Source of the DNA: Mesorhizobium sp. 131-2-1
Lineage (GTDB): Bacteria; Pseudomonadota; Alphaproteobacteria; Rhizobiales; Rhizobiaceae
Assembly: GCF_016756535.1 (NCBI RefSeq)
Contig: NZ_AP023247.1
Location: 3,844,501 to 3,908,500, forward strand
Length of the DNA stretch: 64,000 bases
Direction of reading: 5' to 3'
Below the pieces are notes generated by a model. The model did no database searches and was not told where the DNA came from. It saw nothing but the letters and a program-made list of their open reading frames with translations. The stretch's first letter is position 1, and each line of letters begins with the position of its first letter. The translations under genes were made by a program, and so were the position numbers. Positions 15,581 through 27,426 of the stretch are shown here, in pieces.

Positions 15581-18500
15581 ATGGCGAAGAAACCAACGAC
15601 ACGAACACTCGACAACGACGTAGCCAAGGAACTCGAACGGGCGCTCGACCTGGATTTGAGTGCGGATGGCGACGGCGGCCTCGATATGGCGGCGTCGATG
15701 GAAGACCTGGAAGCGCAGATTTCAGCCGCGGCTGACGAGCTGGCGCGCGAAGGGCGCAGCCAGAAAGAGGAGCCGGCGGCCGTTCAGAATCAGAACATGT
15801 GGCCGGCACAGAACACGCAGCCGGCGGCGCAACCCAAGCCGGCCGAGTTGCGTCCGGTTGAAACGCGCAACGGCGCGCAGCCGGCCGGCTTCACCCCGGC
15901 CAATGACGACCGCCAGAAGGATTACCGCACGCTGCTGCACGGCCTCAACCGGCGCGCGTCGAGCACCATCTACTGGGTCGTGGCGTTCATTTCTCTGGCC
16001 TGGATCGCCGGCGCCGGCGGCCTGGCCAACCTCCTGTTCGGCCCGGGCATCTGGAAAATCCGCACCGCCGACCAGTTCTTCGCCCGCCCCGAGCTGATCG
16101 GCTTGGCGGTCGCGGCGATCATCCCCGTCATCCTGTTCTGGGCCTTCGCGGCCATGGTGCGCCGGGCGCAGGAGATGCGCCTTGCCGCGCAGTCGATGAC
16201 GGAAGTGGCCTTCCGTCTGGCCGAGCCGGAGAACCTGGCCCAGGACCGCGTCATGATGATCGGCCAGGCCGTGCGCCGCGAGGTTGCGGCGATGGGCGAA
16301 GGCATCGAGCGCACCCTGGCGCGCGCCGTCGAGCTGGAAACGCTGGTCCACAGCGAAGTCAACCAGATCGAACGCTCCTATTCGGAGAACGAAGCCCGTA
16401 TCCGCTCGCTGGTCGACGGTCTCGGCAGCGAGCGCGAAGCCGTCGTCACCCATGCCGAGCGCGTGCGCGCTTCGATCGCCAGCGCGCATGAGACGCTCAG
16501 GGACGAGATCGGCTCGGCCAGCGACATCATCCGCGATTCGATCCTCAATGCCTCGACCAAGCTGTCGATGACGATCAACAATTCCGGCGACACGCTGATC
16601 GACCGCATCAACGAGAGCTCGATGTCGATCTTCGATTCGGTCGAAGGCCGGCTCGATACGATCACCGACCGGCTGTCGACCTCGGGCGAGGCCTTCGCCA
16701 GCCTGCTCGACACCCGCATCGCCAAGCTGACCGACACCACAGATGGCCTCACCCGGTCGCTGACCGACCTGCTCGACGACCGCACCAGCGGCATGGTTTC
16801 GCTGCTGGGCGGTGCCGCGCGCACGCTGAGCTCCGAGTTCGAAAACAGCCTCAGCGGCATCGAGCGTACGCTGGCCGAACGCGGCCAGGCGCTGATCAGC
16901 GAATTCCAGACCCGCGCCGAGGCGCTCGACACCGGCACGCAGAAGCTCAACGCCGCGCTCGAGGCCCGCGCCCGCCAGATCAACGAGACGCTGGTCGAAC
17001 GCGCACGCGAAATCGCCCACACCTTCGCCGAGAGCAAGGACCAGCTGTCGACGATGATCGACCAGGGCAAGACCCAGATCGGCGCCGACATGGCCGACAT
17101 CATCTCGTCGACCTCGTCCATGCTCGAGGCCCGCGCCAGCGACTTCGCCGGTCGCATGGAAGCGGCCCGCCATGTTGTCTCGCGTTCCTTCGACAGCGAC
17201 ATCCAGCGGCTCGCGGATGCTCGCGTCGGCATCGAGGAAGCGGTGGAGAACCACAGCCGCAAGCTTTCGGAAAGCCGTGACCGCATGGCTGCCGCCATGC
17301 AGGCCGACCTGGCGACGTTCGCGGAGAGCCGCGCTGGCATCGACGCCGCCGTGACCGACCAGGTGCAGAAGCTGGCGGAAGGCCGCGACCTCATTGCGCG
17401 CGCGCTGGAAGACGACCTGCGTAAGGTCAACGAATCGCGCGCCGCCATTGACGCGTCGCTCGGCGCCCATCTCGAACAGCTCGAACAGGGCCGCAACAGG
17501 CTTTCGCAGGCCTTGAACGAAGACTCCGGGAAGCTCGTGCAAGCCCGTACGATCATTGATGAAATGGTCGCCGGCCATGTCGGCAAGCTGGCCGAAGGCC
17601 GCAACATATTGGCGCGTGCGCTGGAAGCCGACCTCGGCAAGCTGGCCGACAGCCGCGCCAGCATCGACGGACTGGTCGCCGGCCAGGTCGAGAAGATCGC
17701 CGAAGGACGCTCGGTGCTCGCCAAGGCGCTGGAGACCGACATCATCGGCATCAGGAGCCTGATCGAGACCCACTCCGCCAAGCTCGCCGAAGACAGGGGC
17801 GAGCTCAGCCGTTCGCTGGAGGACGACCTGTCGGGCATCAGGAACCTGATCGAGGGTCATGCCGTCAGGCTGGCCGACGACCGCAGCCTGCTGTCGCAGA
17901 CGCTCGAAGCCGACCTCGCCAAGCTGGCGGAGGGCCGCTCCAGCATCGACGGGCTGGTTGCCGGTCAGGTCGAGAAGCTCGCCGAGGGCCGCGACATCCT
18001 CAAGCGCGCGCTCGAAGCCGACATCAATACGATCAAGGGCGCTATCGCCGGTCATTCCGAGCGGGTGGCGGAAGAGCGCAGCCAGCTTTCCAAGGCCCTG
18101 GAAGCCGATCTGCAGAATGTAAACAGCCTGATCTCCGATCACACGAACCGGCTCGTCCAGGATCGCTCGACGCTGTCGCAGGCCCTGCAGGACGACCTGC
18201 AGAATGTGAACGGCATCATGGCCGATCACCAGAGCCGGCTTGTCCAGGACCGCTCGACGCTGGCCAAGGCCCTGGAGGACGACCTCGCCAAGCTGGCCGA
18301 GAGCCGCTCCAGCATCGACGGGCTGGTCGCCGGCCAGGTCGAGAAGCTCGCCGAGGGCCGGGATATCCTCAAGCGTGCGCTCGAAGCCGATCTCAACACG
18401 ATCCGGAGCGCCATTGCCGACCAGTCGCTGAAGCTGACCGACAACCGCGCCGAGTTCGCGCGGGTGCTGGAAGGTGATCTCGAGAACGTCAACAGCCTCC

Positions 18501-21500
18501 TCCAGGGCCACAGCGACAGGCTTGCCGAGGATCGCTTGGCGCTGTCCAAGGCGCTCGAGGACGATCTCGCCAAGCTGGCCGAGAGCCGCTCTAGCATCGA
18601 CGGGCTGGTCGCCGGCCAGGTCGAGAAGCTTGCCGAGGGCCGCGATATCCTCAAGCGCGCCCTGGAAGCGGACCTGCAGAAGCTCGCCGCGGGCCGCAGC
18701 GAGATCGACGACATCATCGCCGGTCATGTCGGCAAGCTGGCCGAAGGCCGCGACATGCTGTCCCGTGCGCTGGAAGACGATCTGGCGAAGCTCGTCGACA
18801 CGCGCAAGGACGTCGACCGTTCGCTCTCCGGCCATATCGACCAGATCGCGGCCCGCAGCGGCGACATCTCGGCGACGATCGCCGCCGATGTCGAAAAGAT
18901 CGAGCAGGCGTTCAACCGGCAGACCGGCATCATTGAGGAACGCGCCGGAACCATGGAGCGTGCACTGTCGACCGGCGTCGACAATGTCCGCAACGTGCTG
19001 GAGAAGAGCGCTGTCTTCGTTGCCGGCGCCCTGCGCGAGAAGGTCATGGAGGTCACCAGCGCCCTTCACGAGCAGGCAGGTCAGGCCTTCAGCGACGCCG
19101 ACCGCAAGATCGCCGAACGCGCAGAACAGACCTCGTCGGCCCTGCTCGCCAGGGCCGAGGACATCGCGCGCGCCTTCGAGGACGCCGATCGTCGCCTGCA
19201 TGCGCGTGCCGAGGATACCACCAGCGCGCTGATTGCCCGGCACGACGATATATCGAGCTCGATGCTCGCCCGTGCCCAGGAGACCGCCGATCAGCTGGCC
19301 GCACGCGCCAGCGAGATCGCAGGCACCTTCGACGCGGCGGACCAGAAGCTGGTTGCCCGTGCGGTCGAGACGGCGCAGTCGCTGGCGGCGCGCGCCGGCG
19401 ACATCCTGCGCAACTTCGAGGGCGCCGACGAACGGCTGAGCATGCGCATCGGCGAATCGGCCGAAGCGCTTGCCGCGCGCGCTTCGGATCTCGGCCGCAT
19501 CTTCGATGCCGCCGACCAGCATCTGATCTCGCGCATCGCCGAGGGTTCGGAAGCCCTGTCGTCGCGTGCGTCCGAGATCGCCCGCATCTTCGACGACGCG
19601 GACCAACGTCTGGTCACCCGCATCGCCGACAGCACCGCCACGATCGGCAGCCATGCCGAGACCATCGTCGGAGCCTTCGCCAGCACCGAGCAACGGGTTG
19701 CCGACCGCTCCCGCCAGACCGGCCAAGAATTGGCCGTCCACGCCCGCGAGATCGAGCAGGCGCTGGCCGGCGCAGACGAGCGCCTGGCGTCGAATGCCGC
19801 GGCGACGGCCGCCCGAATCGAGGAGCAGCTCTCGGGAGTCGAGAACCGCCTCGCCCATACCGCGGAAGCGATGGGCCAGAAGCTGAACGAGCAGGTCTCG
19901 GGCGCCGAGGCGCAACTTATTTCGCGCGCCAATGTGATCGCGGAGACCTTCACCGCGGTCGGTCAGCATATCGGCCAGAGCACCAACGACGCCGCCAAGA
20001 CCATCGGCGCCAACACCCGCGAGCTCAACACGATGCTCGCGGCGCGCTCGGCCGAGATGTCGCGGATCCTCGACGAGACGGCCAAGCCGCTGGTCGAGCG
20101 CTTCGCCCAGGGCGGCTCGGAGCTGCAGCGGAGCATGGAAGAGGTCACCGAGCGGGCGACCGAGAAGCTGCGCAGTGAAAACGCAGCCCTCGTCAACGCG
20201 CTCGCCAGCCGCACGGCCGAGACCCTGTCGGCTGTCGAAGGCGCGCGTTCGACGCTCGCCGACAGCGTCGCCGAGCTCATCGGCCGCTTGAGCACCTCCA
20301 GCGCCCAGCTCGGTCAGCTGATCGATCAAGCGGCGGTCAATCTCGGCCATGTCGAGGAGCGGCTCACCGGAAGCACGCAGAGCTTCGCGACGACCACGGA
20401 AAAGGCCGCGCAGACCTTCGCCAGCTCGGCGCGCCTGGTCGATTCCAACACGAGCCGGCTCACCGACCTGTCGTCGGCCACGCTGCGCGAGGTCGCATCG
20501 ATCGCCACCAAGTTCGACGAGCACAGCCGGTTGCTCTCCAGCGCCTCGGACCTGCTCAGCTCCGCGCAGAGCAATCTCGAGCACACGCTGGAGCGGCAGT
20601 CGTCGCTGGACGACCTTGCCGTCGGCCTGGTCAAGAAGTCGGAAGATCTCGAAAAGGTCATGCGCTCGTTCGAGAACCTGGTCGGCCAGACCATGCAGAA
20701 CGCCGAGGGCCGAACCATGGAATCGGCGGAAAAAATTCGCACTGCCATCGCCGAGGTCGTCGAGTCGGCGACGAAGCGCTTCGCCGACGCGACCGAGGAG
20801 ATGCGGCGCACCGCCGGCTCGATCAAGAGCGAGCTGGACCTCACCCGCGCCGAACTCAAGAAGGGCGTCATCGAGATGCCGGAAGAGGCCAAGGAATCGA
20901 CCTCGGCCATCCGCCGCGCCGTTTCCGAGCAGATCAACGCGCTCAAGGAGCTCTCCGACATCGTCGCGAAGTCCGGCCGCAGCGGCAGCGACTCCTCGGA
21001 GCCGCGCAGCCTACGCCCGGCGCCGCAGGCGCCGGCCCGTCCGGCAGAGCCGCCGCGCCGTCCGCCGGCGCCGCCACAGCCCGAGCGCCGGGCTCCACAG
21101 GCGCCGTTGGCTGAAACGACCTTGCGCGGCACGCTCGACCTCGATCGTCCCGCCGAGGCCCCGCTCCGCGAACCCAATGGCCGCACGCCGCAAGGCGGCT
21201 GGGTGCGCGATCTCCTGACTGGAGCGTCGCGCGAGGAGGACCTCAGGCCGGCCGCTCCGGCGGAAGCGCCGCGTCCGGCTCCGGCCCAGCGCTCGCCGCT
21301 GCATGTCGTGGAATCGCTCAACTCGCTGTCGGTCGACATCGCGCGCGCCATCGACCACGACGCCTCGATCGAGCTGTGGAACCGTTATCGCCGCGGCGAG
21401 CGCGACGTGTTCACTCGGCGCCTCTATACGCTGAAGGGCCAGCAGACCTTCGACGAGATCCGCCGCAAGTACCAGGCCGAGGCCGAGTTCCGTGCCGCCG

Positions 21501-21646
21501 TCGACCGCTACTGCGACGATTTCGAAAAGCTGCTCAAGGACGTGGCGCGCAACGACCGCGACAACATCATGGCGCAGACCTATCTGACGTCGGACACCGG
21601 CAAGGTCTACACCATGCTGGCCCACGCCAGCGGCCGCCTGCACTAA
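15581..21646 (+). CDS. rgsE: Giant coiled-coil growth-pole ring protein (GPR/RgsE family)
   Basis: 2021 residues. A disordered N-terminus is followed by two transmembrane helices (about residues 129-150 and 171-193). A very long apolipoprotein-like helical repeat region covers about residues 220-1780. A Pro/Arg-rich linker (about 1808-1907) precedes a conserved C-terminal globule (about 1910-2021, starting ESLNSLSVDIARAIDH). Size and order match the GROWTH POLE RING protein of Agrobacterium (RgsE in Sinorhizobium), an inner-membrane scaffold needed for unipolar elongation in Rhizobiales. The repeats come in lengths of 22, 29 and 36 residues. It is followed by a terminator. The family assignment is from architecture and memory; no alignment was run. 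Confidence 0.85.
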   Translation: MAKKPTTRTLDNDVAKELERALDLDLSADGDGGLDMAASMEDLEAQISAAADELAREGRSQKEEPAAVQNQNMWPAQNTQPAAQPKPAELRPVETRNGAQPAGFTPANDDRQKDYRTLLHGLNRRASSTIYWVVAFISLAWIAGAGGLANLLFGPGIWKIRTADQFFARPELIGLAVAAIIPVILFWAFAAMVRRAQEMRLAAQSMTEVAFRLAEPENLAQDRVMMIGQAVRREVAAMGEGIERTLARAVELETLVHSEVNQIERSYSENEARIRSLVDGLGSEREAVVTHAERVRASIASAHETLRDEIGSASDIIRDSILNASTKLSMTINNSGDTLIDRINESSMSIFDSVEGRLDTITDRLSTSGEAFASLLDTRIAKLTDTTDGLTRSLTDLLDDRTSGMVSLLGGAARTLSSEFENSLSGIERTLAERGQALISEFQTRAEALDTGTQKLNAALEARARQINETLVERAREIAHTFAESKDQLSTMIDQGKTQIGADMADIISSTSSMLEARASDFAGRMEAARHVVSRSFDSDIQRLADARVGIEEAVENHSRKLSESRDRMAAAMQADLATFAESRAGIDAAVTDQVQKLAEGRDLIARALEDDLRKVNESRAAIDASLGAHLEQLEQGRNRLSQALNEDSGKLVQARTIIDEMVAGHVGKLAEGRNILARALEADLGKLADSRASIDGLVAGQVEKIAEGRSVLAKALETDIIGIRSLIETHSAKLAEDRGELSRSLEDDLSGIRNLIEGHAVRLADDRSLLSQTLEADLAKLAEGRSSIDGLVAGQVEKLAEGRDILKRALEADINTIKGAIAGHSERVAEERSQLSKALEADLQNVNSLISDHTNRLVQDRSTLSQALQDDLQNVNGIMADHQSRLVQDRSTLAKALEDDLAKLAESRSSIDGLVAGQVEKLAEGRDILKRALEADLNTIRSAIADQSLKLTDNRAEFARVLEGDLENVNSLLQGHSDRLAEDRLALSKALEDDLAKLAESRSSIDGLVAGQVEKLAEGRDILKRALEADLQKLAAGRSEIDDIIAGHVGKLAEGRDMLSRALEDDLAKLVDTRKDVDRSLSGHIDQIAARSGDISATIAADVEKIEQAFNRQTGIIEERAGTMERALSTGVDNVRNVLEKSAVFVAGALREKVMEVTSALHEQAGQAFSDADRKIAERAEQTSSALLARAEDIARAFEDADRRLHARAEDTTSALIARHDDISSSMLARAQETADQLAARASEIAGTFDAADQKLVARAVETAQSLAARAGDILRNFEGADERLSMRIGESAEALAARASDLGRIFDAADQHLISRIAEGSEALSSRASEIARIFDDADQRLVTRIADSTATIGSHAETIVGAFASTEQRVADRSRQTGQELAVHAREIEQALAGADERLASNAAATAARIEEQLSGVENRLAHTAEAMGQKLNEQVSGAEAQLISRANVIAETFTAVGQHIGQSTNDAAKTIGANTRELNTMLAARSAEMSRILDETAKPLVERFAQGGSELQRSMEEVTERATEKLRSENAALVNALASRTAETLSAVEGARSTLADSVAELIGRLSTSSAQLGQLIDQAAVNLGHVEERLTGSTQSFATTTEKAAQTFASSARLVDSNTSRLTDLSSATLREVASIATKFDEHSRLLSSASDLLSSAQSNLEHTLERQSSLDDLAVGLVKKSEDLEKVMRSFENLVGQTMQNAEGRTMESAEKIRTAIAEVVESATKRFADATEEMRRTAGSIKSELDLTRAELKKGVIEMPEEAKESTSAIRRAVSEQINALKELSDIVAKSGRSGSDSSEPRSLRPAPQAPARPAEPPRRPPAPPQPERRAPQAPLAETTLRGTLDLDRPAEAPLREPNGRTPQGGWVRDLLTGASREEDLRPAAPAEAPRPAPAQRSPLHVVESLNSLSVDIARAIDHDASIELWNRYRRGERDVFTRRLYTLKGQQTFDEIRRKYQAEAEFRAAVDRYCDDFEKLLKDVARNDRDNIMAQTYLTSDTGKVYTMLAHASGRLH
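17246..18826 (+). repeat. Sixteen tandem 36/29-residue repeats in the growth-pole protein
   Basis: Residues 556-1082 divide without gaps into 16 units of either 36 or 29 residues, in the order 36 x4, 29 x2, 36, 29 x3, 36, 29 x2, 36 x3. A typical unit start is AGQVEKLAEGRDILKRALEA. The long form carries one extra heptad. Copies near 17,935, 18,300 and 18,580 are close to identical also at DNA level, suggesting recent duplication or gene conversion. Confidence 0.85.
19094..19900 (+). repeat. Second repeat family (29/22 residues) in the growth-pole protein
   Basis: From residue 1172 a different consensus repeats (starts such as GADERL, AADQKL, DADQRL). Lengths are 29, 29, 22, 29 x5, then 22 and 22. 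It has the same seven-residue step as the upstream family but a different sequence, with Arg-Ala pairs in place of Glu-Gly-Arg. Confidence 0.78.
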
Positions 21647-21667: not shown

Positions 21668-21703
21668 AGAAAGGGGGGACCCGGTCCCGCCCTTTCTGCT
21701 TTT
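21668..21703 (+). terminator. Rho-independent terminator after the growth-pole gene
   Basis: Arms AGAAAGGGGGGACC (21668-21681) and GGTCCCGCCCTTTCT (to 21697) pair with one bulged base and are followed by GCTTTT. It lies 21 bp after the stop codon. Confidence 0.75.
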
Positions 21704-21788
21704 GGGCCGATGCTCTAGAGATGTCCCAAGACACCGTAAATCTTTAGACTCAATTGGATGTCCGCACCGTGGATTGAGGCTTGTGGCA

Positions 21789-22244
21789 ATGCAGACAATT
21801 CGTGGCGATCTGCTTCAGCTTGCGCTCGACGGAAAGTTCGATGTCATAGTGCATGGATGCAATTGCCAATGCCAAATGGGCAAGGGGATTGCTCTTTCGA
21901 TAAAGCAGCGTTTTCCCGAGGCATATGCTGCGGATTGCGCGACGTTGAAGGGCGACCTAGCCAAGTTGGGAAGCATATCCGTTGCTGACATCAAGCGGGA
22001 AAGCCGCAGTTTCCATGTCGTCAATGGCTACACTCAATTCCATTGGCAGGGCAAAGGGGTGAAAGCCGACTACCACGCGATCCGAAAAGTCATGCAGGCC
22101 GTCAAGGCCAGATTCGCTGGCAAAAGGATCGGCTACCCGAAAATTGGCGCAGGTTTGGCTGGAGGCGATTGGCAAGCTATCGTCTCAATCATCGAGGACG
22201 AGCTCGCGGGCGAAGATCACACGCTCGTAGAATACACGCCTTGA
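21789..22244 (+). CDS. Macro-domain protein
   Basis: 151 residues from the ATG at 21789. Macro-domain features are the opening QTIRGDLLQLA, IVHGCNCQCQMGKGIA (the ADP-ribose-binding loop with Asn and Gly), and IGYPKIGAGLAGGDW (second binding loop). Such domains bind or hydrolyse ADP-ribose derivatives, for example ADP-ribose-1''-phosphate or ADP-ribosylated targets. The subtype with CNCQCQMGKGIA resembles the phosphatase-like group also found in phages. Base composition is lower in GC than neighbours (28 of 60 in 21841-21900), so it may be acquired. No ADP-ribosyltransferase partner is adjacent. Confidence 0.86.
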   Translation: MQTIRGDLLQLALDGKFDVIVHGCNCQCQMGKGIALSIKQRFPEAYAADCATLKGDLAKLGSISVADIKRESRSFHVVNGYTQFHWQGKGVKADYHAIRKVMQAVKARFAGKRIGYPKIGAGLAGGDWQAIVSIIEDELAGEDHTLVEYTP

Positions 22245-22291: not shown

Positions 22292-22900
22292 TCAGATCAC
22301 CGAATCTGTCCAGCGGACGATGTCCTTCGCCGCCTGGCCGAAGGCGCTGTCCAGCGCGCCGACATAGGCGGCGTTGCCGCTGCCCGAAACGGGCGCGCTT
22401 GCCGAGAAGCTCTTGGCGGCGCGGACCTCGCCATTGCGGTCGTTGAGGATGCGCACGAACAGATCGACCTCGGCGTGCTCGCCGCCGTTGACGCGGACCT
22501 CGAAGGAACGGACCTCGGCGATGATCTGGTAGTCGATAGCCAGCCCCTCGCCCGGCTTGCCGACCCCGGCGAAGCTGCCGGAACGCTGGAAGGTCTCGGC
22601 AAGCCTCGCCTGCACGATCAGCGGCAGCCGGTCGGCCCATTGCGCGCCCTTGAGATATTGGATCGACAGGTCTGACGGTCTGATGACGATGTTCTGGCTG
22701 TCCAGCGCTTTGAGCGCGGAAGGCTGGGCGATCAGGATCTGCCGGCGGCTGTGGCCATGCGCGTCGATCGACGGCGCCGACAGCTCGAACGTGTCGAGCG
22801 GCGCCGGCTTGGCGCCGAGCGCCGCGCAGCCGGCCAGCGAGAGCGCAAGCAGCGCCGCAGCCGATGTCAATCCAACCGACCTTGCCCAAACCGACGTCAC
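22292..22900 (-). CDS. ABC-transport auxiliary lipoprotein (PqiC/YmbA-like)
   Basis: 202 residues from a GTG at 22900 preceded by GGGGA. The N-terminal lipoprotein signal ends in LALSLAGC, with cysteine as the lipidation site. The mature domain matches the ABC-type transport auxiliary component family: an early TFELSAPS, a central IQYLKGAQWADRLPLIV and a C-terminal helix ending IVRWTDSVI. Such lipoproteins sit in the outer or inner membrane leaflet and partner with MCE transporters. It is last of a four-gene operon, 79 bp behind mlaD. Confidence 0.82.
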   Translation of the reverse strand: MTSVWARSVGLTSAAALLALSLAGCAALGAKPAPLDTFELSAPSIDAHGHSRRQILIAQPSALKALDSQNIVIRPSDLSIQYLKGAQWADRLPLIVQARLAETFQRSGSFAGVGKPGEGLAIDYQIIAEVRSFEVRVNGGEHAEVDLFVRILNDRNGEVRAAKSFSASAPVSGSGNAAYVGALDSAFGQAAKDIVRWTDSVI

Positions 22901-22979
22901 GCGCGATCCCCGTTGTCCCCAGATCGTAAGATCAACCCGCAATTGCGGCTTCTGTTCTTGCGGTGGGTGATGGCCGAAG

Positions 22980-24353
22980 TCAACGCCGCACCCTGCCGTC
23001 ATATTGCCGGACCTCACCCTCGCCGCCCGACAGGATGCGCTGCGGATTGCGGCTGAGATCGGTCACCGCTTCCTCGATGCGGTTGATCGAGCGGCGGCTG
23101 TCCTGGACCAGCGCCTCGACATTCTGCAGGCCCTGGCCGGAGAAGCGGGCCAGGTTGTCGGTGATGGTGCCGAGCCGCGCATTCAGCGTGTCGGCGACCT
23201 GCTTGAACGATTTCAGCGTGTCGCGAGCGTCCGCCATGACGCCGTTCGCCTCGCCCGAGCCGAGCAGCTTGTCGACCTTGGCCAGGATGCCGTCGACGCG
23301 CACCGAGGCGTCGTTCAGTCGCTGGGCGAGCTGCTTGGCGTCCTTGATGGTGTCGTCGATGTCGTCGGCGCGGCTGGCGAATTTGTTCGTGACCTTGGCG
23401 ATGTCGGCGGCGGCCTGATTGGCGTTTTCGCTGGCCTTCTGGATGTTGGCCAGCGCCGTGCGCACCTCGGCCGGATCGATGCCGTCGAGCACGCCGTTGA
23501 CCTTGTCCAGCGTGCCTTGCGTCTTCTGGGCGAAGTCGTTGATCGAGCCGACCGCCGTGTTGACGTTGTTGATGACGGTGTCGAACTGCTTGGAGGTTTC
23601 CTTCAGATTGCCGGTGACCGTGTCGACATTGGCGACGATGCTCTTGATCTTATCCTTGTCGACGGCGTTGAGCAGGCCTTCGGCGGCCTTCAAAGTTCCG
23701 TCAAGCTTGCCCGAGACCCCCTTCAGCTCGTCCGAGAGCGAGCTCACGCTGGACAGGAACTTGTCGATGCCATCGGAATTCTTGGCCAGCGCGTCCGAGA
23801 AGGTCTGCACGTTCTTGACCGTATCGGTCAGCGGCCCGCGCACGTCGTGGGTGAAGCCTTCGAGATCGGAGAGCACCTTGTCGGCGCGGGTGAAGATGTT
23901 CTGCGCGGTCTGCAGGAGGTTGGTGACGGCGGACGGATTGGCGACGATCTCGGCGACCTTGCCTTCCTTCTCGGCCTGGTCGAGCAGCTTCGGCTCCCTG
24001 GGGTCGGCGCCCTTGAGCTCGATATTGGCCTGACCGGTGAGACCGGCAAGCCCGATATCGGCCTGCGTCGACTTGGTGATCGGCGTCATCCGGTCGATCT
24101 CGGTGTCGGCGATGGCGACCGTCGGGTTGTCGACGTCGATGTAGACGCGCCTGACGTCACCCACCTTGACGCCGTTGAACAGCACGAAACTGCCGCGGCC
24201 GAGGCCGGACGCCGAGCCTGGGATGCGCACGCGCAGGAGCGTCGTCTCGCCCTTGTCGCCGATCGCCGCCGTCCAATAGACGAAGGCAAAGGCCGCCAGG
24301 ATCGCGGCCAGCGTGAAGATGCCGACAATGACGTAGTTGGCTCTGGTTTCCAT
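22980..24353 (-). CDS. MCE-domain protein MlaD-like
   Basis: 457 residues. An N-terminal transmembrane anchor lies at about residues 7-28. A single MCE domain at about 38-115 contains FNGVKVGDVRRVYID and GQANIELKGA. A long coiled-coil C-terminus rich in Asn/Asp/Lys/Thr covers about 140-440. This is longer than E. coli MlaD (183 residues) and resembles MCE proteins with needle- or barrel-forming helices that bridge the periplasm. It is probably the substrate-binding core of a phospholipid transporter with the downstream ATPase and permease. The ATPase stop is 14 bp before its start. Confidence 0.88.
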   Translation of the reverse strand: METRANYVIVGIFTLAAILAAFAFVYWTAAIGDKGETTLLRVRIPGSASGLGRGSFVLFNGVKVGDVRRVYIDVDNPTVAIADTEIDRMTPITKSTQADIGLAGLTGQANIELKGADPREPKLLDQAEKEGKVAEIVANPSAVTNLLQTAQNIFTRADKVLSDLEGFTHDVRGPLTDTVKNVQTFSDALAKNSDGIDKFLSSVSSLSDELKGVSGKLDGTLKAAEGLLNAVDKDKIKSIVANVDTVTGNLKETSKQFDTVINNVNTAVGSINDFAQKTQGTLDKVNGVLDGIDPAEVRTALANIQKASENANQAAADIAKVTNKFASRADDIDDTIKDAKQLAQRLNDASVRVDGILAKVDKLLGSGEANGVMADARDTLKSFKQVADTLNARLGTITDNLARFSGQGLQNVEALVQDSRRSINRIEEAVTDLSRNPQRILSGGEGEVRQYDGRVRR

Positions 24354-24367
24354 TGCCCCACTTATGG

Positions 24368-25177
24368 CTATGCGCGCGCCGCAAGATCAAGTTGCCGTGC
24401 ACGTTTTCCGCGAAAATAGGATTTCACCCACGGCTCCTCGCTTTTCAGCATGTCGTCGATCGTGCCTTCGACCAGCACCTTCTTCTTGCCGAGCACCGCC
24501 ACGCGGTCGCAGGCGGTGAACAGCGTGTCGAGGTCATGCGTGACCATGTAGACGGTGAGATCCATCGTATCGCGCAGCTTGACCACCAGCTCGTCGAATT
24601 CGGCGGCGCTGATCGGATCGAGGCCGGATGTCGGCTCGTCGAGGAAGACGATGTCCGGATCGAGCGCCAGCGCGCGCGCCAGTGCCGCGCGCTTGATCAT
24701 GCCGCCGGACAATTCGGATGGGAATTTCTGCGCGGCATCAGGCGGCAGCCCGACAAGCTCGATCTTCAGCAGCGCCAGCTCGTCCATCAGCTTCTTCGGC
24801 AGGTCGAGGTATTCGCGCATCGGCACCTGCACGTTCTCCTGCACCGTCAGCGCCGAAAACAGCGCGCCGTGCTGGAACAGCACGCCAAGGCGCATATCGA
24901 TGCGCAGGCGCTCGATGTCGCTCGCCTTCTCGACATCGACGCCGAACAGCTTGATCGTGCCCGACTGCTTGTGCAGCAGGCCGAGGATTGTGCGCAAAAG
25001 CACCGATTTGCCGGCGCCCGAGGCGCCGACGAAGCCAAGGATCTCACCGCGGGTGATGTCGAGCGACAGTTTGTCGAGGATGACCTTGTCATCCAGGGCG
25101 ACGGTGACGTCGCGAACGGACAGCACGATCTCGTTTTCGGTGGTTTCCTTGGCCTCGGTACCGTTTCGCGTCGCCAT
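24368..25177 (-). CDS. MlaF-type ABC transporter ATP-binding protein
   Basis: 269 residues. The Walker A is GASGAGKSV, the ABC signature is ELSGGMIKRAALARALA, and the Walker B is DIVFLDEPTSGLDP. The MKR-type signature and the DLDTLFTACDRVAVL segment are typical for MlaF/Mce ATPases. It powers lipid movement through the MlaE permease. Its ATG starts one base before the permease stop codon (2 bp apart), so the two are tightly coupled. Confidence 0.92.
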   Translation of the reverse strand: MATRNGTEAKETTENEIVLSVRDVTVALDDKVILDKLSLDITRGEILGFVGASGAGKSVLLRTILGLLHKQSGTIKLFGVDVEKASDIERLRIDMRLGVLFQHGALFSALTVQENVQVPMREYLDLPKKLMDELALLKIELVGLPPDAAQKFPSELSGGMIKRAALARALALDPDIVFLDEPTSGLDPISAAEFDELVVKLRDTMDLTVYMVTHDLDTLFTACDRVAVLGKKKVLVEGTIDDMLKSEEPWVKSYFRGKRARQLDLAARA

Positions 25178-25178
25178 G

Positions 25179-26366
25179 TCAGAACTCTATCGCGGCGTAG
25201 AACATGGCAAAAAGCCCGTCGAGGATGATGACGACGAAGATCGACTTCACCACCGAGGCGGTCACGTGCTGGCCAAGCGATTCCGCGCTGCCGCCGACCT
25301 TCATGCCCTCGACGGAGGCGATGGTGCCGATGATCATGGCCATGAACGGCGCCTTGATCAGGCCGGCGAAGATGGTGCTGAGATCGATGGCGACGCGCAG
25401 CCGGTCGATGAAGGCGGCAGGGGGAATGTCGGAATAGAGCCAGGCGGCGATGATGCCGCCGCCAAGGGCGGCGAAATTGGCGATGATGGTGAGACACGGC
25501 AGCGCGATGACCAGCGCGACCAGGCGCGGGAACACCAGCACGCCGATCGGGTTCAGGCCGATGACCTTGAGCGCGTCGACCTCCTCGCGCATCTTCATCG
25601 AACCGATCTCGGCGGTGATGGCGCTGCCGGAGCGGCCGGCGATCATGATCGCCGTCATCAGCACGCCGAGTTCGCGCAGGATCAGCACGCCGACTAGGTC
25701 GACGACGAAGATGTCGGCGCCGAAATAGCTGAGCTGGTAGGCGCCCTGCTGGGCAACGATGGCGCCGACGATGGCCGACATCAGCACCACCACCGGGATG
25801 GCGCCGACGCCCATGCGGTCGATCTGGTTGAAAATGGCGGCCGGGTTGACGGCATGGCCGCGGCCAAGCTTCATCTGCGCGCCGCGGATGGTGGCGCCGA
25901 GGATGTTCATCGAGGCCAGGAAATCGTCACGCATCTCATAGACGCGCCGGCCGACCGCCTCCAGCGCGCGGATGATGATGTTGGGCGGACCGGCGGGGCC
26001 CGATTCGGGCTCGCGCCGGACAGCGTCGCCGACGGCGCCGAGCAGGATCGAGGCGATCTCGCTCTGCCCCTGCATCCTGACTTCGACGCCCTTCTTCTCG
26101 AAAGCACTGACCAGGCGGTCGATCAGCCAGGCACCGGCGGTGTCCATCTTCTCAATTTGTGAAAGATCGAGCGCCAAGGTCTTGAAACCGCTGCGCTTCT
26201 CGATTTTGCGCATTTCCGCGTCGACCAGCGCCACGGTGCGCGTCGTCCAGCTTCCGGAGAAAGCGCAGCCGAGAACGCCACGCTCCTCGCCAACGGCAAT
26301 GCGCGGCTGGCCGTTCGGCTCCTTGGCGGCCGTGCCGCTTGCGTCGCGTTTGCGGATGGTCAACAT
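25179..26366 (-). CDS. MlaE-like permease with fused N-terminal STAS (MlaB-like) domain
   Basis: 395 residues from the ATG at 26366. Residues about 18-115 form a STAS domain (LALDLSQIEKMDTAGAWLID). Residues about 150-395 are the MlaE permease, with five to six membrane helices and the conserved EIGSMKMREEVDALKVIGLNP loop that contacts the ATPase. In E. coli the STAS protein MlaB is separate; here it is part of the permease chain, which is common in alphaproteobacteria. It is first gene of the operon and divergent from the epimerase gene, with 76 bp between starts. Confidence 0.9.
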   Translation of the reverse strand: MLTIRKRDASGTAAKEPNGQPRIAVGEERGVLGCAFSGSWTTRTVALVDAEMRKIEKRSGFKTLALDLSQIEKMDTAGAWLIDRLVSAFEKKGVEVRMQGQSEIASILLGAVGDAVRREPESGPAGPPNIIIRALEAVGRRVYEMRDDFLASMNILGATIRGAQMKLGRGHAVNPAAIFNQIDRMGVGAIPVVVLMSAIVGAIVAQQGAYQLSYFGADIFVVDLVGVLILRELGVLMTAIMIAGRSGSAITAEIGSMKMREEVDALKVIGLNPIGVLVFPRLVALVIALPCLTIIANFAALGGGIIAAWLYSDIPPAAFIDRLRVAIDLSTIFAGLIKAPFMAMIIGTIASVEGMKVGGSAESLGQHVTASVVKSIFVVIILDGLFAMFYAAIEF

Positions 26367-26442
26367 GGCGTCCTGTTTAGCCTGCCGGAACCGGCCTGTC
26401 ATTTGCCGGCGCCCGGTTGTCGCACTGCCCGAGAAGAAAAAT

Positions 26443-27426
26443 ATGGCGCGTGTCATTTCGGTCGAATCCGAGCGTTTCCCCATTGCCGGCGCCTTCACCA
26501 TCTCGCGCGGCTCGAAGACCGAGGCGGAAGTCATCACCGTGACGATCGGTGAAAGCGGGCATGCCGGGCGCGGCGAATGCGTCCCCTACAAGCGCTATGG
26601 CGAGACCATGGATGGCGTGCGCGAGGCGATCGAAGGCATGCGCGGCCAGCTCGCCGGGGGCATCGGTCGGATCGCGCTGTTCGACGCCATGCCGGCGGGT
26701 GCGGCCCGCAACGCCGTCGATTGCGCCTTGTGGGACCTGGAAGCGAAGTTGAGCGGCACGCCGGTGGCGGATGCGATATGCGCTGCTCCGCCGCGGGCGC
26801 TCGAGACGGCCTACACGCTCTCGCTGGGCGAGCCGGAGGCGATGGCGGCGCAGGCCCGCGCCAACGCGGCGCGGCCACTGCTCAAGGTCAAGATCGGCGG
26901 GGACAACGACATGGCCCGCATCCGAGCCGTTACCGAAGCGGCGCCCGCCAGCCGCATCATCCTCGACGCCAATGAGGGTTGGACGGACGACAATATCGTC
27001 GAAAACCTCGCCTTCGCCGCCGAGCACGGCATCACGCTGATCGAACAGCCGCTGCCGGCCGGCCGCGACGGCATCCTGAGTCAGATCGCGCATCCGGTGC
27101 CGATCTGCGCCGACGAAAGCGTGCACGAGGCGAAGGGCCTCGAGGCCCTCGTCGGACTTTATGATGCCGTGAACATCAAGCTCGACAAATCCGGCGGGCT
27201 GACCGAGGCGCTGGTGCTGCGCGAGCGCGCCCGCGCGCTCGGCTTCCGCATCATGGTCGGCTGCATGGTCGGCACCTCGCTGGCGATGGCGCCGGCCGTG
27301 CTTCTGGCGCAGGGCGCCGATTTCGTCGATCTCGACGGTCCGCTGCTGCTCGCGAGGGACCGCGAGCCAGGCCTCGTCTACCAGGGATCGCTGGTGCTAC
27401 CCCCCGACAGGACGCTGTGGGGTTGA
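26443..27426 (+). CDS. Dipeptide (L-Ala-D/L-Glu) epimerase, enolase superfamily
   Basis: 327 residues from the ATG at 26443, with GAGAAG upstream. It has the enolase/muconate lactonizing fold: a KVKIGGD motif carrying the first catalytic Lys, metal ligands in DANEGW, EQPLP and ICADES, and a second catalytic Lys in VNIKLDKSGG. A Cys-Met-Val-Gly-Thr loop (GCMVGTSLAM) is as in YcjG-type epimerases. It acts on L-Ala-D-Glu from murein peptide recycling. The 3' end overlaps the convergent MFS gene by 30 bp. Other specificities within the subgroup are possible. Confidence 0.88.
   Translation: MARVISVESERFPIAGAFTISRGSKTEAEVITVTIGESGHAGRGECVPYKRYGETMDGVREAIEGMRGQLAGGIGRIALFDAMPAGAARNAVDCALWDLEAKLSGTPVADAICAAPPRALETAYTLSLGEPEAMAAQARANAARPLLKVKIGGDNDMARIRAVTEAAPASRIILDANEGWTDDNIVENLAFAAEHGITLIEQPLPAGRDGILSQIAHPVPICADESVHEAKGLEALVGLYDAVNIKLDKSGGLTEALVLRERARALGFRIMVGCMVGTSLAMAPAVLLAQGADFVDLDGPLLLARDREPGLVYQGSLVLPPDRTLWG

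What the first reader, a model, noticed from the sequence alone, without database searches (positions are those of the whole stretch)
17246..19900. Quantised 22/29/36-residue repeats in the growth-pole ring protein
Direct reading divides residues 556-1082 into 16 units of 36 or 29 residues, and residues 1172-1440 into units of 29 or 22. All lengths are 7n+1. Every length change is thus the gain or loss of one heptad, in two unrelated sequence families within one protein. The helical periodicities would be 22/6 = 3.67, 29/8 = 3.63 and 36/10 = 3.60 residues per turn, so unit order may set the local supercoil and make a pattern of twisted and straight segments. I do not know of a description of this ordering for GPR/RgsE proteins.
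Basis: partly seen in the sequence, partly recalled or inferred. Interest (0 to 1): 0.75.

Follow-up and report, generated by a model that had tools for sequence, protein, structure and literature searches.

The report
Phase-locked helical repeats in polar-growth protein
A giant helical protein linked to tip growth in rhizobia is built of repeat cassettes whose lengths match whole turns of the alpha-helix, so cassettes can come and go without rotating the rest of the rod.

Summary
The repeats are real. In this 2021-aa growth pole ring (GPR/RgsE-type) protein, residues 556-1082 divide into sixteen units of 29 or 36, and 1172-1440 fits 29s and 22s. In 60 same-genus proteins 1059 of 1065 array-1 anchor spacings are 29 or 36. 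But 7n+1 is a special case. The recurring element is the hendecad (11 residues, 3 turns) with optional heptads: 36=(7+11)+(7+11), 29=(7+11)+11, 22=11+11. Relatives also use 33, 40, 44, 51, 55, 66 and 76, none 7n+1, all 11b+7a with a<=b: 3.60-3.67 residues per turn. In 30 disjoint close pairs the rod has no indel under 7 in 50,162 residue pairs and 34 longer ones, all of that form; the disordered segments have 66 under 7 in 6,410. A supercoil code is not supported: drifts are small and unit order is lineage-specific. Best reading: a near-straight hydrophobic seam made of interchangeable, phase-neutral cassettes, working like the Streptomyces polarity protein Scy (51 residues, 14 turns) and apolipoprotein 11/22-mers. 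New variant of a known kind. Caveats: no structure could be predicted; small indels are also absent from other structured segments; the rule is weak in residues 1083-1171 and 1441-1790.

The parts
15581..21646 (+). GPR/RgsE-type growth pole ring protein gene, 2021 aa
   Evidence: ORF; PF01442 at 92.9 bits against a cut-off of 90; homologue of its first 240 aa in 100 of 101 family and 97 of 99 genus genomes, own genome counted in both
15581..15913 (+). presumed disordered N-terminal segment (residues 1-111): internal control with indels of many small lengths
   Evidence: 26 indels under 7 residues and 5 of 7 or more in 3,300 residue pairs; lengths 1-9 and 12
15914..16192 (+). segment with two hydrophobic stretches taken as transmembrane helices (residues 112-204)
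   Evidence: read by eye; topology as described for GPR in PMC8262873; no indel in 2,790 residue pairs
16244..17245 (+). first part of the rod (residues 222-555), hendecad repeats (lags 11, 22, 33; hydropathy period 3.655)
17246..18826 (+). array 1: sixteen units, nine of 36 and seven of 29 residues; core spacing (7,4,4,3)x2 and (7,4,4,3)+(4,4,3)
   Evidence: hydropathy period 3.61 for residues 556-1090
17243..18154 (+). conserved start of array 1: nine spacings 36 36 36 36 29 29 36 29 29
   Evidence: 58 of 60 same-genus proteins; 16 sequences chosen for having these spacings align without a gap over 304 columns
18116..18700 (+). turnover zone of array 1 (residues 846-1040): whole units gained or lost between close relatives
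   Evidence: 28 of 34 rod indels in the 30 disjoint pairs lie here
19094..19900 (+). array 2 (residues 1172-1440): 29-residue units with extra hendecads
19208..19303 (+). turnover zone of array 2 (residues 1210-1241): indels of 11 (four), 18 and 40 residues
   Evidence: 6 of 34 rod indels
20951..21292 (+). Pro-rich linker (residues 1791-1904): internal control, indels of small length
   Evidence: 40 indels, all under 7 residues, in 3,110 residue pairs
21299..21643 (+). conserved C-terminal domain (115 aa)
   Evidence: 16-sequence alignment, mean column identity 83%; no indel in 2,925 residue pairs counted as C-terminal

Best explanation
The rod (about residues 222-1790, a single proline between 217 and 1766) is a long alpha-helix with one narrow hydrophobic seam. 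It is built from hendecads (core steps 4,4,3) with an optional heptad, not more than about one heptad per hendecad, so a cassette is a whole number of turns at 3.60-3.67 residues per turn, close to the undistorted helix (3.63). Cassettes are therefore phase-neutral: 11, 18, 29, 36, 40, 65 or more residues can be added or removed and the seam downstream still faces the same way, while indels that break the phase are removed by selection. Shown: cassette lengths, turn numbers, indel spectrum in close pairs, where turnover happens, seam width in array 1. Inferred: that the rod is a continuous helix; that the seam mediates near-straight helix-helix association of GPR chains in the growth-pole ring; that selection on phase, and not only intolerance of any small indel, does the filtering; that recombination between repeats is the mutational source.
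For: Array-1 spacings are 29 or 36 in 1059 of 1065 cases in the genus. In 30 disjoint close pairs 34 of 34 rod indels have lengths 11b+7a with a<=b; 32 of them are 72 or shorter, where 18 of 72 lengths qualify, the other two (159, 217) are too long to be informative. None is under 7 in 50,162 residue pairs, against 66 under 7 in 6,410 residue pairs of the two disordered segments. Top-5 lags fit 11b+7a (a<=b; 41% of lags 5-130) in 300/300 genus, 200/200 family and 836/840 further relatives, and in 299/300, 196/200 and 798/840 with hydrophobic residues masked. The expected turn number is the strongest hydropathy harmonic in 21 of 24 repeat cases that I picked from the lag lists, from 22->6 to 94->26. 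Hydropathy period 3.655, 3.61, 3.63 and 3.62 in four rod segments; SMC arms of the same genome 3.51 and 3.48 with heptad lags. Seam of array 1: 99-100% LIVMF in the central 40 degrees, 26% or less beyond 60 degrees. Inserted 29/36 blocks have a copy elsewhere in the gene at median 0.84 DNA identity.
Against: The transmembrane and C-terminal segments also have no indels (0 in 2,790 and 0 in 2,925 residue pairs), so absence of small indels does not prove selection on phase. Whole-unit indels are in phase by homology alone. For the 11/18/40 indels the best copy elsewhere (median 0.73) is little above background (0.67 for random 11-codon pieces). DNA likeness does not by itself place the turnover: units 672 and 766 are 0.81 alike, yet no indel lies at 205-845. 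With hydrophobics masked, residues 1083-1171 and 1441-1790 show mostly lags outside the set, and unmasked 1441-1790 has 6 of 10 top lags in it, with lags 7 and 14. In all overlapping pairs of identity 0.85 or more the rod also shows 19 gaps under 7, 230 of 7 and 47 of 43, 45 or 79; 7, 43 and 79 equal differences of unit sums (36-29, 72-29, 108-29) and may be alignment compromises, the others are unexplained. The expected harmonic was not the strongest in 3 of 24 cases, nor in the pooled 36-units (harmonic 8 at 0.22, harmonic 10 at 0.17). No structure could be predicted. PF01442 membership and neighbouring lipid-transport genes also suit a lipid-binding helix. Pairs were matched by identity, not on a tree.
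Confidence: 0.68

Rival explanations
1. Apolipoprotein-like reading: the 11/22 periodicity marks an amphipathic helix that lies on the inner membrane or binds lipid; heptads are decoration and the rod folds back into bundles like ApoA-IV.
For: PF01442 over its curated cut-off, 10 stretches; in 168 further relatives the top lag is 22 in 91 and 11 in 56; published modelling on ApoA-IV (PMC8262873, section read); MCE, MlaF and MlaE matches in 57, 57 and 56 of 65 named loci.
Against: Array-1 seam about 120 degrees wide with a nearly pure L/I/V/M/F core, narrower than I would expect of lipid-binding class A helices (recalled); no Trp, about 0.1% Tyr and 1.6% Phe in the rod; one proline in residues 217-1766, whereas apolipoprotein 22-mers are often punctuated by proline (recalled). 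No PDB sequence match for residues 556-1440, which also means no match to solved apolipoproteins at that sensitivity.
Confidence: 0.25
2. Pure tandem-duplication reading: units are copies made by recombination or slippage and lengths are quantised only because copies have their parent's length; helical phase plays no part.
For: Most rod indels are whole units with a near copy elsewhere; unit turnover sits where adjacent units are alike (889 and 983 are 0.91 alike); 94-residue super-repeats (36+29+29) are among the top lags of all 60 genus proteins.
Against: Does not explain why different lineages use 22, 33, 36, 40, 44, 51, 55, 66 and 76, all whole helical turns, nor the 11, 18 and 40 indels of array 2. 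Units 672 and 766 are alike but stable.
Confidence: 0.15
3. One reading: the order of 22, 29 and 36 units sets a pattern of twisted and straight segments.
For: Theory links hydrophobic periodicity to supercoil (PMC9858780, passages); the first nine spacings are the same in 58 of 60 genus proteins; segment periods differ, 3.655, 3.61, 3.63, 3.62.
Against: Drift per unit is at most 30 degrees and its sign depends on the helix value assumed; about 30 different unit strings in 60 genus proteins; other genera use other cassettes.
Confidence: 0.07
4. Ruler: the number of cassettes sets rod length and hence the size of the growth-pole ring.
For: 12 to 32 array-1 anchors within the genus; family open frames from 1,236 to 3,032 codons, leaving out two on short contigs (not checked for completeness).
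Against: Rod length varies widely even within one genus; no ring measurements exist here.
Confidence: 0.12

Closest known systems
GPR of Agrobacterium tumefaciens and RgsE of Sinorhizobium meliloti (PMC8262873, sections read; PMC7327166, passages read)
   Same: About 2,000-2,100 aa, N-terminal membrane anchor, very long helical region matching PF01442; found across Rhizobiales.
   Different: Those texts describe apolipoprotein A-IV-like domains and short predicted coiled coils; the words repeat, heptad and hendecad do not occur in the main text of PMC8262873. Neither reference protein was fetched, so their own cassettes were not measured.
Scy (CC51) and FilP of Streptomyces, polar-growth coiled-coil proteins
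   Same: Polar-growth scaffold with a rod over 1,000 residues, described as almost entirely hendecads (PMC9858780, passages); Scy has a 51-residue repeat forming 14 turns (PMC3718342, passages). GPR relatives L130 (unnamed) and L236 (Chelativorans salis) have about four copies of a 51-residue repeat with 14 turns.
   Different: No DivIVA family in the Pfam rows, different phylum, membrane-anchored; the window's own arrays are not 51-residue repeats. Likeness of working, not membership.
Eukaryotic apolipoproteins A-I/A-IV/E (PF01442)
   Same: Pfam cut-off met; 11- and 22-residue repeats (apolipoprotein side recalled).
   Different: Added heptads giving 18/29/36/40/51, almost no proline, far longer, narrow seam in array 1.
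Heptad coiled coils (SMC arms)
   Same: Long helical rod with a hydrophobic stripe.
   Different: SMC of this genome: lags 7, 14, 21 and periods 3.51 and 3.48; GPR rod: z of 1.1, 0.5, 0.2, -0.4 at lags 7, 14, 21, 28 and period 3.63.
Coiled-coil period theory (PMC9369452, passages read)
   Same: Periods decompose into steps of 3, 4 and 7, and realisable lengths oscillate with period length.
   Different: General theory; the passages seen do not treat this protein.

Membership tests
GPR/RgsE growth pole ring protein | very long helical rod matching PF01442 | tested here: met
   92.9 bits against cut-off 90, 10 stretches; helicity itself inferred
GPR/RgsE growth pole ring protein | two N-terminal transmembrane helices | tested here: inconclusive
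   two hydrophobic stretches read by eye in residues 112-204; no topology program run
GPR/RgsE growth pole ring protein | homologue throughout the family and genus | tested here: met
   100 of 101 and 97 of 99 genomes, own genome included
GPR/RgsE growth pole ring protein | direct sequence match to Atu1348 or SMc00190 | not tested
   neither protein was identified by name among the fetched sequences
GPR/RgsE growth pole ring protein | localises at the growth pole and is needed for rod shape | not testable with these tools
   experiment needed
Apolipoprotein A1/A4/E (PF01442) | profile score over the curated cut-off | tested here: met
Apolipoprotein A1/A4/E (PF01442) | 11/22-residue periodicity | tested here: met
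   residues 222-555 and most further relatives; array 1 uses 29/36 instead
Apolipoprotein A1/A4/E (PF01442) | lipid binding | not testable with these tools
   seam width in array 1 argues against
Scy/FilP (CC51) family | N-terminal DivIVA-like domain | tested here: not met
   no DivIVA family among the 18 Pfam rows up to E 10
Scy/FilP (CC51) family | hendecad-rich rod with a 51-residue, 14-turn repeat | tested here: inconclusive
   found in relatives L130 and L236, not in the window's own arrays
Canonical heptad coiled coil | 7-residue periodicity, about 3.5 residues per turn | tested here: not met
   rod period 3.63; z of 0.5, 0.2 and -0.4 at lags 14, 21 and 28; residues 1441-1790 do show lags 7 and 14

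The most novel reading that the evidence does not exclude
Two unrelated polar-growth scaffolds, GPR in Rhizobiales and Scy in Streptomyces, have converged on near-straight rods of hendecads plus sparse heptads (both reach 51 residues per 14 turns) because phase-neutral cassettes let rod length evolve freely while the interaction seam stays aligned; cassette number then tunes ring or polarisome size.
Probability: 0.2. Interest if true: 0.72.

Novelty: new variant of a known kind. Interest (0 to 1): 0.5.

Why it matters
It gives a sequence-level rule for the rod of an important polar-growth protein, not found in the papers searched: lengths are whole helical turns. It makes deletions designable: in-phase ones (11, 18, 22, 29, 36) should be tolerated better than out-of-phase ones. 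It offers a possible reason why a deletion of about 20 residues was the most disruptive in a published interference test (PMC8262873): 20 residues is 5.5 turns, 21 is 5.8, 22 is 6.1. The paper gives 20 and 21, and end points 413-433 and 413-434, so the phase of that deletion is not certain; and deletion of the surrounding domain (232-494, 263 residues by those end points, also out of phase) was milder, which speaks against a phase-only explanation. The disordered segments of the same protein serve as a built-in control for indel tolerance.

Tried and rejected
Rejected: the 7n+1 law as a general rule; the rod as a heptad coiled coil. Not seen in the closest pairs: single-heptad gain or loss (0 of 34 indels), with the wider-pair gaps of 7 left unresolved. 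Undetermined: relationship of the two arrays (hhalign probability 0.2%, E 0.27). Led nowhere: PDB sequence search of residues 556-1440 (0 matches); NCBIfam (one match at E 0.71, far under cut-off); a second protein search meant to find a named Agrobacterium or Sinorhizobium sequence (none of the 64 listed rows names one); a tree to polarise hendecad against heptad-containing cassettes: a strict motif kept 42 rows, 20 of 40 family proteins were dropped, 21 of 38 inner branches are open, so no polarity is drawn; paper searches on apolipoprotein 11/22-mers (0 papers) and hendecads in Alphaproteobacteria (0 papers). Rows dropped: L085 (frame broken in that record) from all genus counts; five other same-genus proteins without the C-terminal end (L062, L070, L078, L086, L092) were kept for the rod. 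Three array-1 spacings over 400 are spurious hits; without them the anchors per protein run from 12 to 32 (one search printed 13-32) and distinct strings are 30 instead of 31. One search used cruder borders and counted 7 gaps of 1-3 residues as rod; by window coordinates 5 of these lie at residue 1800 and none in 205-1790. The 168 further relatives include near-duplicates and are mostly unnamed.


Full report
WHAT IS THERE. The finding lies in an ORF of 2021 aa at 15581-21646. A homologue of its first 240 residues is in 100 of 101 family genomes and 97 of 99 genus genomes, own genome counted in both. The genus is taken as Mesorhizobium by inference: contigs of same-genus genomes have the same lengths as named Mesorhizobium contigs (736143 and 262572 bases); the window's genome itself is unnamed. 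Pfam finds the apolipoprotein A1/A4/E domain, 92.9 bits against a cut-off of 90, in ten stretches. The protein is treated as a GPR/RgsE-type growth pole ring protein, as described in PMC8262873 (abstract and sections 3, 5, 7, 8, 10, 12 read) and PMC7327166 (passages read). It was not aligned to Atu1348 or SMc00190.

OBSERVATION. In 60 same-genus proteins the spacings are 29 (480), 36 (579), 58 (3) and three spurious values. Array 2 has anchors 51, 29, 29, 29 apart, consistent with 29s and 22s.

THE REAL QUANTUM. Lag scoring without a unit model gives 29, 36, 18, 94, 11, 58, 22, 40, 65 as the leading lags of the genus. Averaged hydropathy of 340 distinct 29-units and 303 distinct 36-units shows core spacings (7,4,4,3)+(4,4,3) and (7,4,4,3) twice (the spacing is my reading of that table). 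So a 36 is two 18s, each a heptad plus a hendecad; a 29 lacks one heptad. Two hendecads give 7n+8, which is why the window shows 7n+1. Relatives show what the window cannot: repeats of 40 in Aquamicrobium aerolatum, 51 in Chelativorans salis, and 22, 33, 44, 55, 66, 76 in unnamed ones. All are 11b+7a with a not above b. The expected number of turns was the strongest hydropathy harmonic in 21 of 24 cases picked from the lag lists; in L131, L153 and L121 it came second, second and third, and in the pooled 36-units second.

HOW GENERAL. Of the five best lags of each protein, 300/300 (60 genus), 200/200 (40 family) and 836/840 (168 further relatives: all those listed, near-duplicates included, mostly unnamed) fall in the set 11b+7a, a<=b, which holds 41% of lags 5-130; with hydrophobic residues masked, 299/300, 196/200 and 798/840. 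So this is not only amphipathic periodicity. 7n+1 accounts for 375 of 1340. Within the window the rule is clear in residues 222-555, 556-1082 and 1172-1440, but masked lags of 1083-1171 and 1441-1790 fall mostly outside the set and unmasked 1441-1790 has 6 of 10 top lags in it. Controls: the two SMC arms of the same genome show lags 7, 14 and 21 and periods 3.51 and 3.48; the MCE protein in the window shows 7, 14, 21, with a period of 3.59. Among the 168 further relatives the top lag is 22 in 91 and 11 in 56, so hendecads are the commonest state; no polarity is claimed.

HOW IT CHANGES. Thirty disjoint pairs of same-genus proteins (identity 0.88-0.99; matched by identity, not by tree) have 34 indels in residues 205-1790: 11 (4), 18, 29 (16), 36 (7), 40, 65 (2), 72, 159, 217. 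All fit 11b+7a; 23 are 7n+1; none is a lone heptad. They lie at residues 846-1040 (28, whole units) or 1210-1241 (6: 11, 18, 40), with none at 205-845 or 1242-1790. No indel under 7 occurs in 50,162 residue pairs of the rod, against 26 in 3,300 and 40 in 3,110 in the two disordered segments; the five longer gaps there are 7, 7, 8, 9 and 12, so none of those 71 gaps is in the set. The transmembrane and C-terminal segments have no indels either. Results against: in all overlapping pairs of identity 0.85 or more the rod also shows 19 gaps under 7, 230 of 7, 47 of 43, 45 or 79, and a further site of 58-residue gaps near 1375-1400. Some can be alignment compromises between unequal arrays; I did not resolve them. 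Inserted 29/36 blocks have a copy in the same gene at median 0.84 DNA identity; for the 11/18/40 blocks it is 0.73 against a background of 0.67. DNA likeness alone does not place the turnover, since units 672 and 766 are 0.81 alike and stable. The first nine spacings are the same in 58 of 60 genus proteins, and the rest of the array gives about 30 different strings with 12 to 32 anchors. Sixteen sequences chosen for having those nine spacings, down to 68% identity, align over 304 columns without a gap; because of that choice this shows only the absence of compensating small indels.

MECHANISM. At 3.63 residues per turn, adding 11, 18, 22, 29, 36 or 40 residues rotates the downstream helix by +11, -15, +22, -4, -30 and +7 degrees. 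Cassettes are thus interchangeable with little turning of the seam. In array 1 the seam is narrow: 99-100% LIVMF in the central 40 degrees, 33-66% in the flanking 40 degrees, 26% or less beyond. The published argument that GPR must fold because an extended 1,700-residue helical domain would be 600 nm (PMC8262873) implies about 0.35 nm per residue; at the alpha-helical rise of 0.15 nm (established knowledge) it spans about 255 nm.

SUPERCOIL CODE. Segment periods differ slightly, 3.655, 3.61, 3.63 and 3.62, so segments could differ in twist, but the differences are near the uncertainty of the helix itself, and unit order is not conserved between lineages.

KNOWN OR NEW. Repeats of hendecads with heptads are known: Scy has a 51-residue repeat forming 14 turns (PMC3718342, passages) and is described as almost entirely hendecads (PMC9858780, passages); the theory of allowed periods is in print (PMC9369452, passages). 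I found no description of these cassettes in GPR/RgsE in searches of the held open-access library. The 2019 paper that first described GPR was not found under the DOI I recalled and was not read. Verdict: a new variant of a known kind.

Noticed in passing
window 22292-26537 (-): ORFs resembling by eye an auxiliary lipoprotein, an MCE protein, an ABC ATPase (MlaF-like) and an MlaE-like permease, a Mla-type lipid transporter, lie convergent to and just downstream of gpr. MCE and MlaF matches are in 57 and MlaE in 56 of 65 named loci of at least 17 kb, in most of the rows printed directly downstream. A link between a polar-growth ring protein and lipid transport may be worth a test.
   Followed up: partly
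window 15722-20584 (-): A 1620-codon open frame runs antisense to gpr; in loci L081, L146 and L147 the antisense frame is even longer than the sense gene. Probably a by-product of high G+C and repeat codon usage.
   Followed up: no
L130, L236; also lag 51 in L234: About four copies of a 51-residue repeat with 14 turns in L130 and L236, the numbers of the CC51 repeat of the Streptomyces polarity protein Scy.
   Followed up: partly
window 21702-22244 (+): Small ORF directly after gpr that looks like a macro-domain protein by eye; tblastn with it at E 1e-15 found no match in 65 named loci.
   Followed up: no
L085 (same-genus locus): The gpr frame ends early in this record and the expected C-terminus is missing; assembly error or real break not resolved; left out of all counts.
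   Followed up: no
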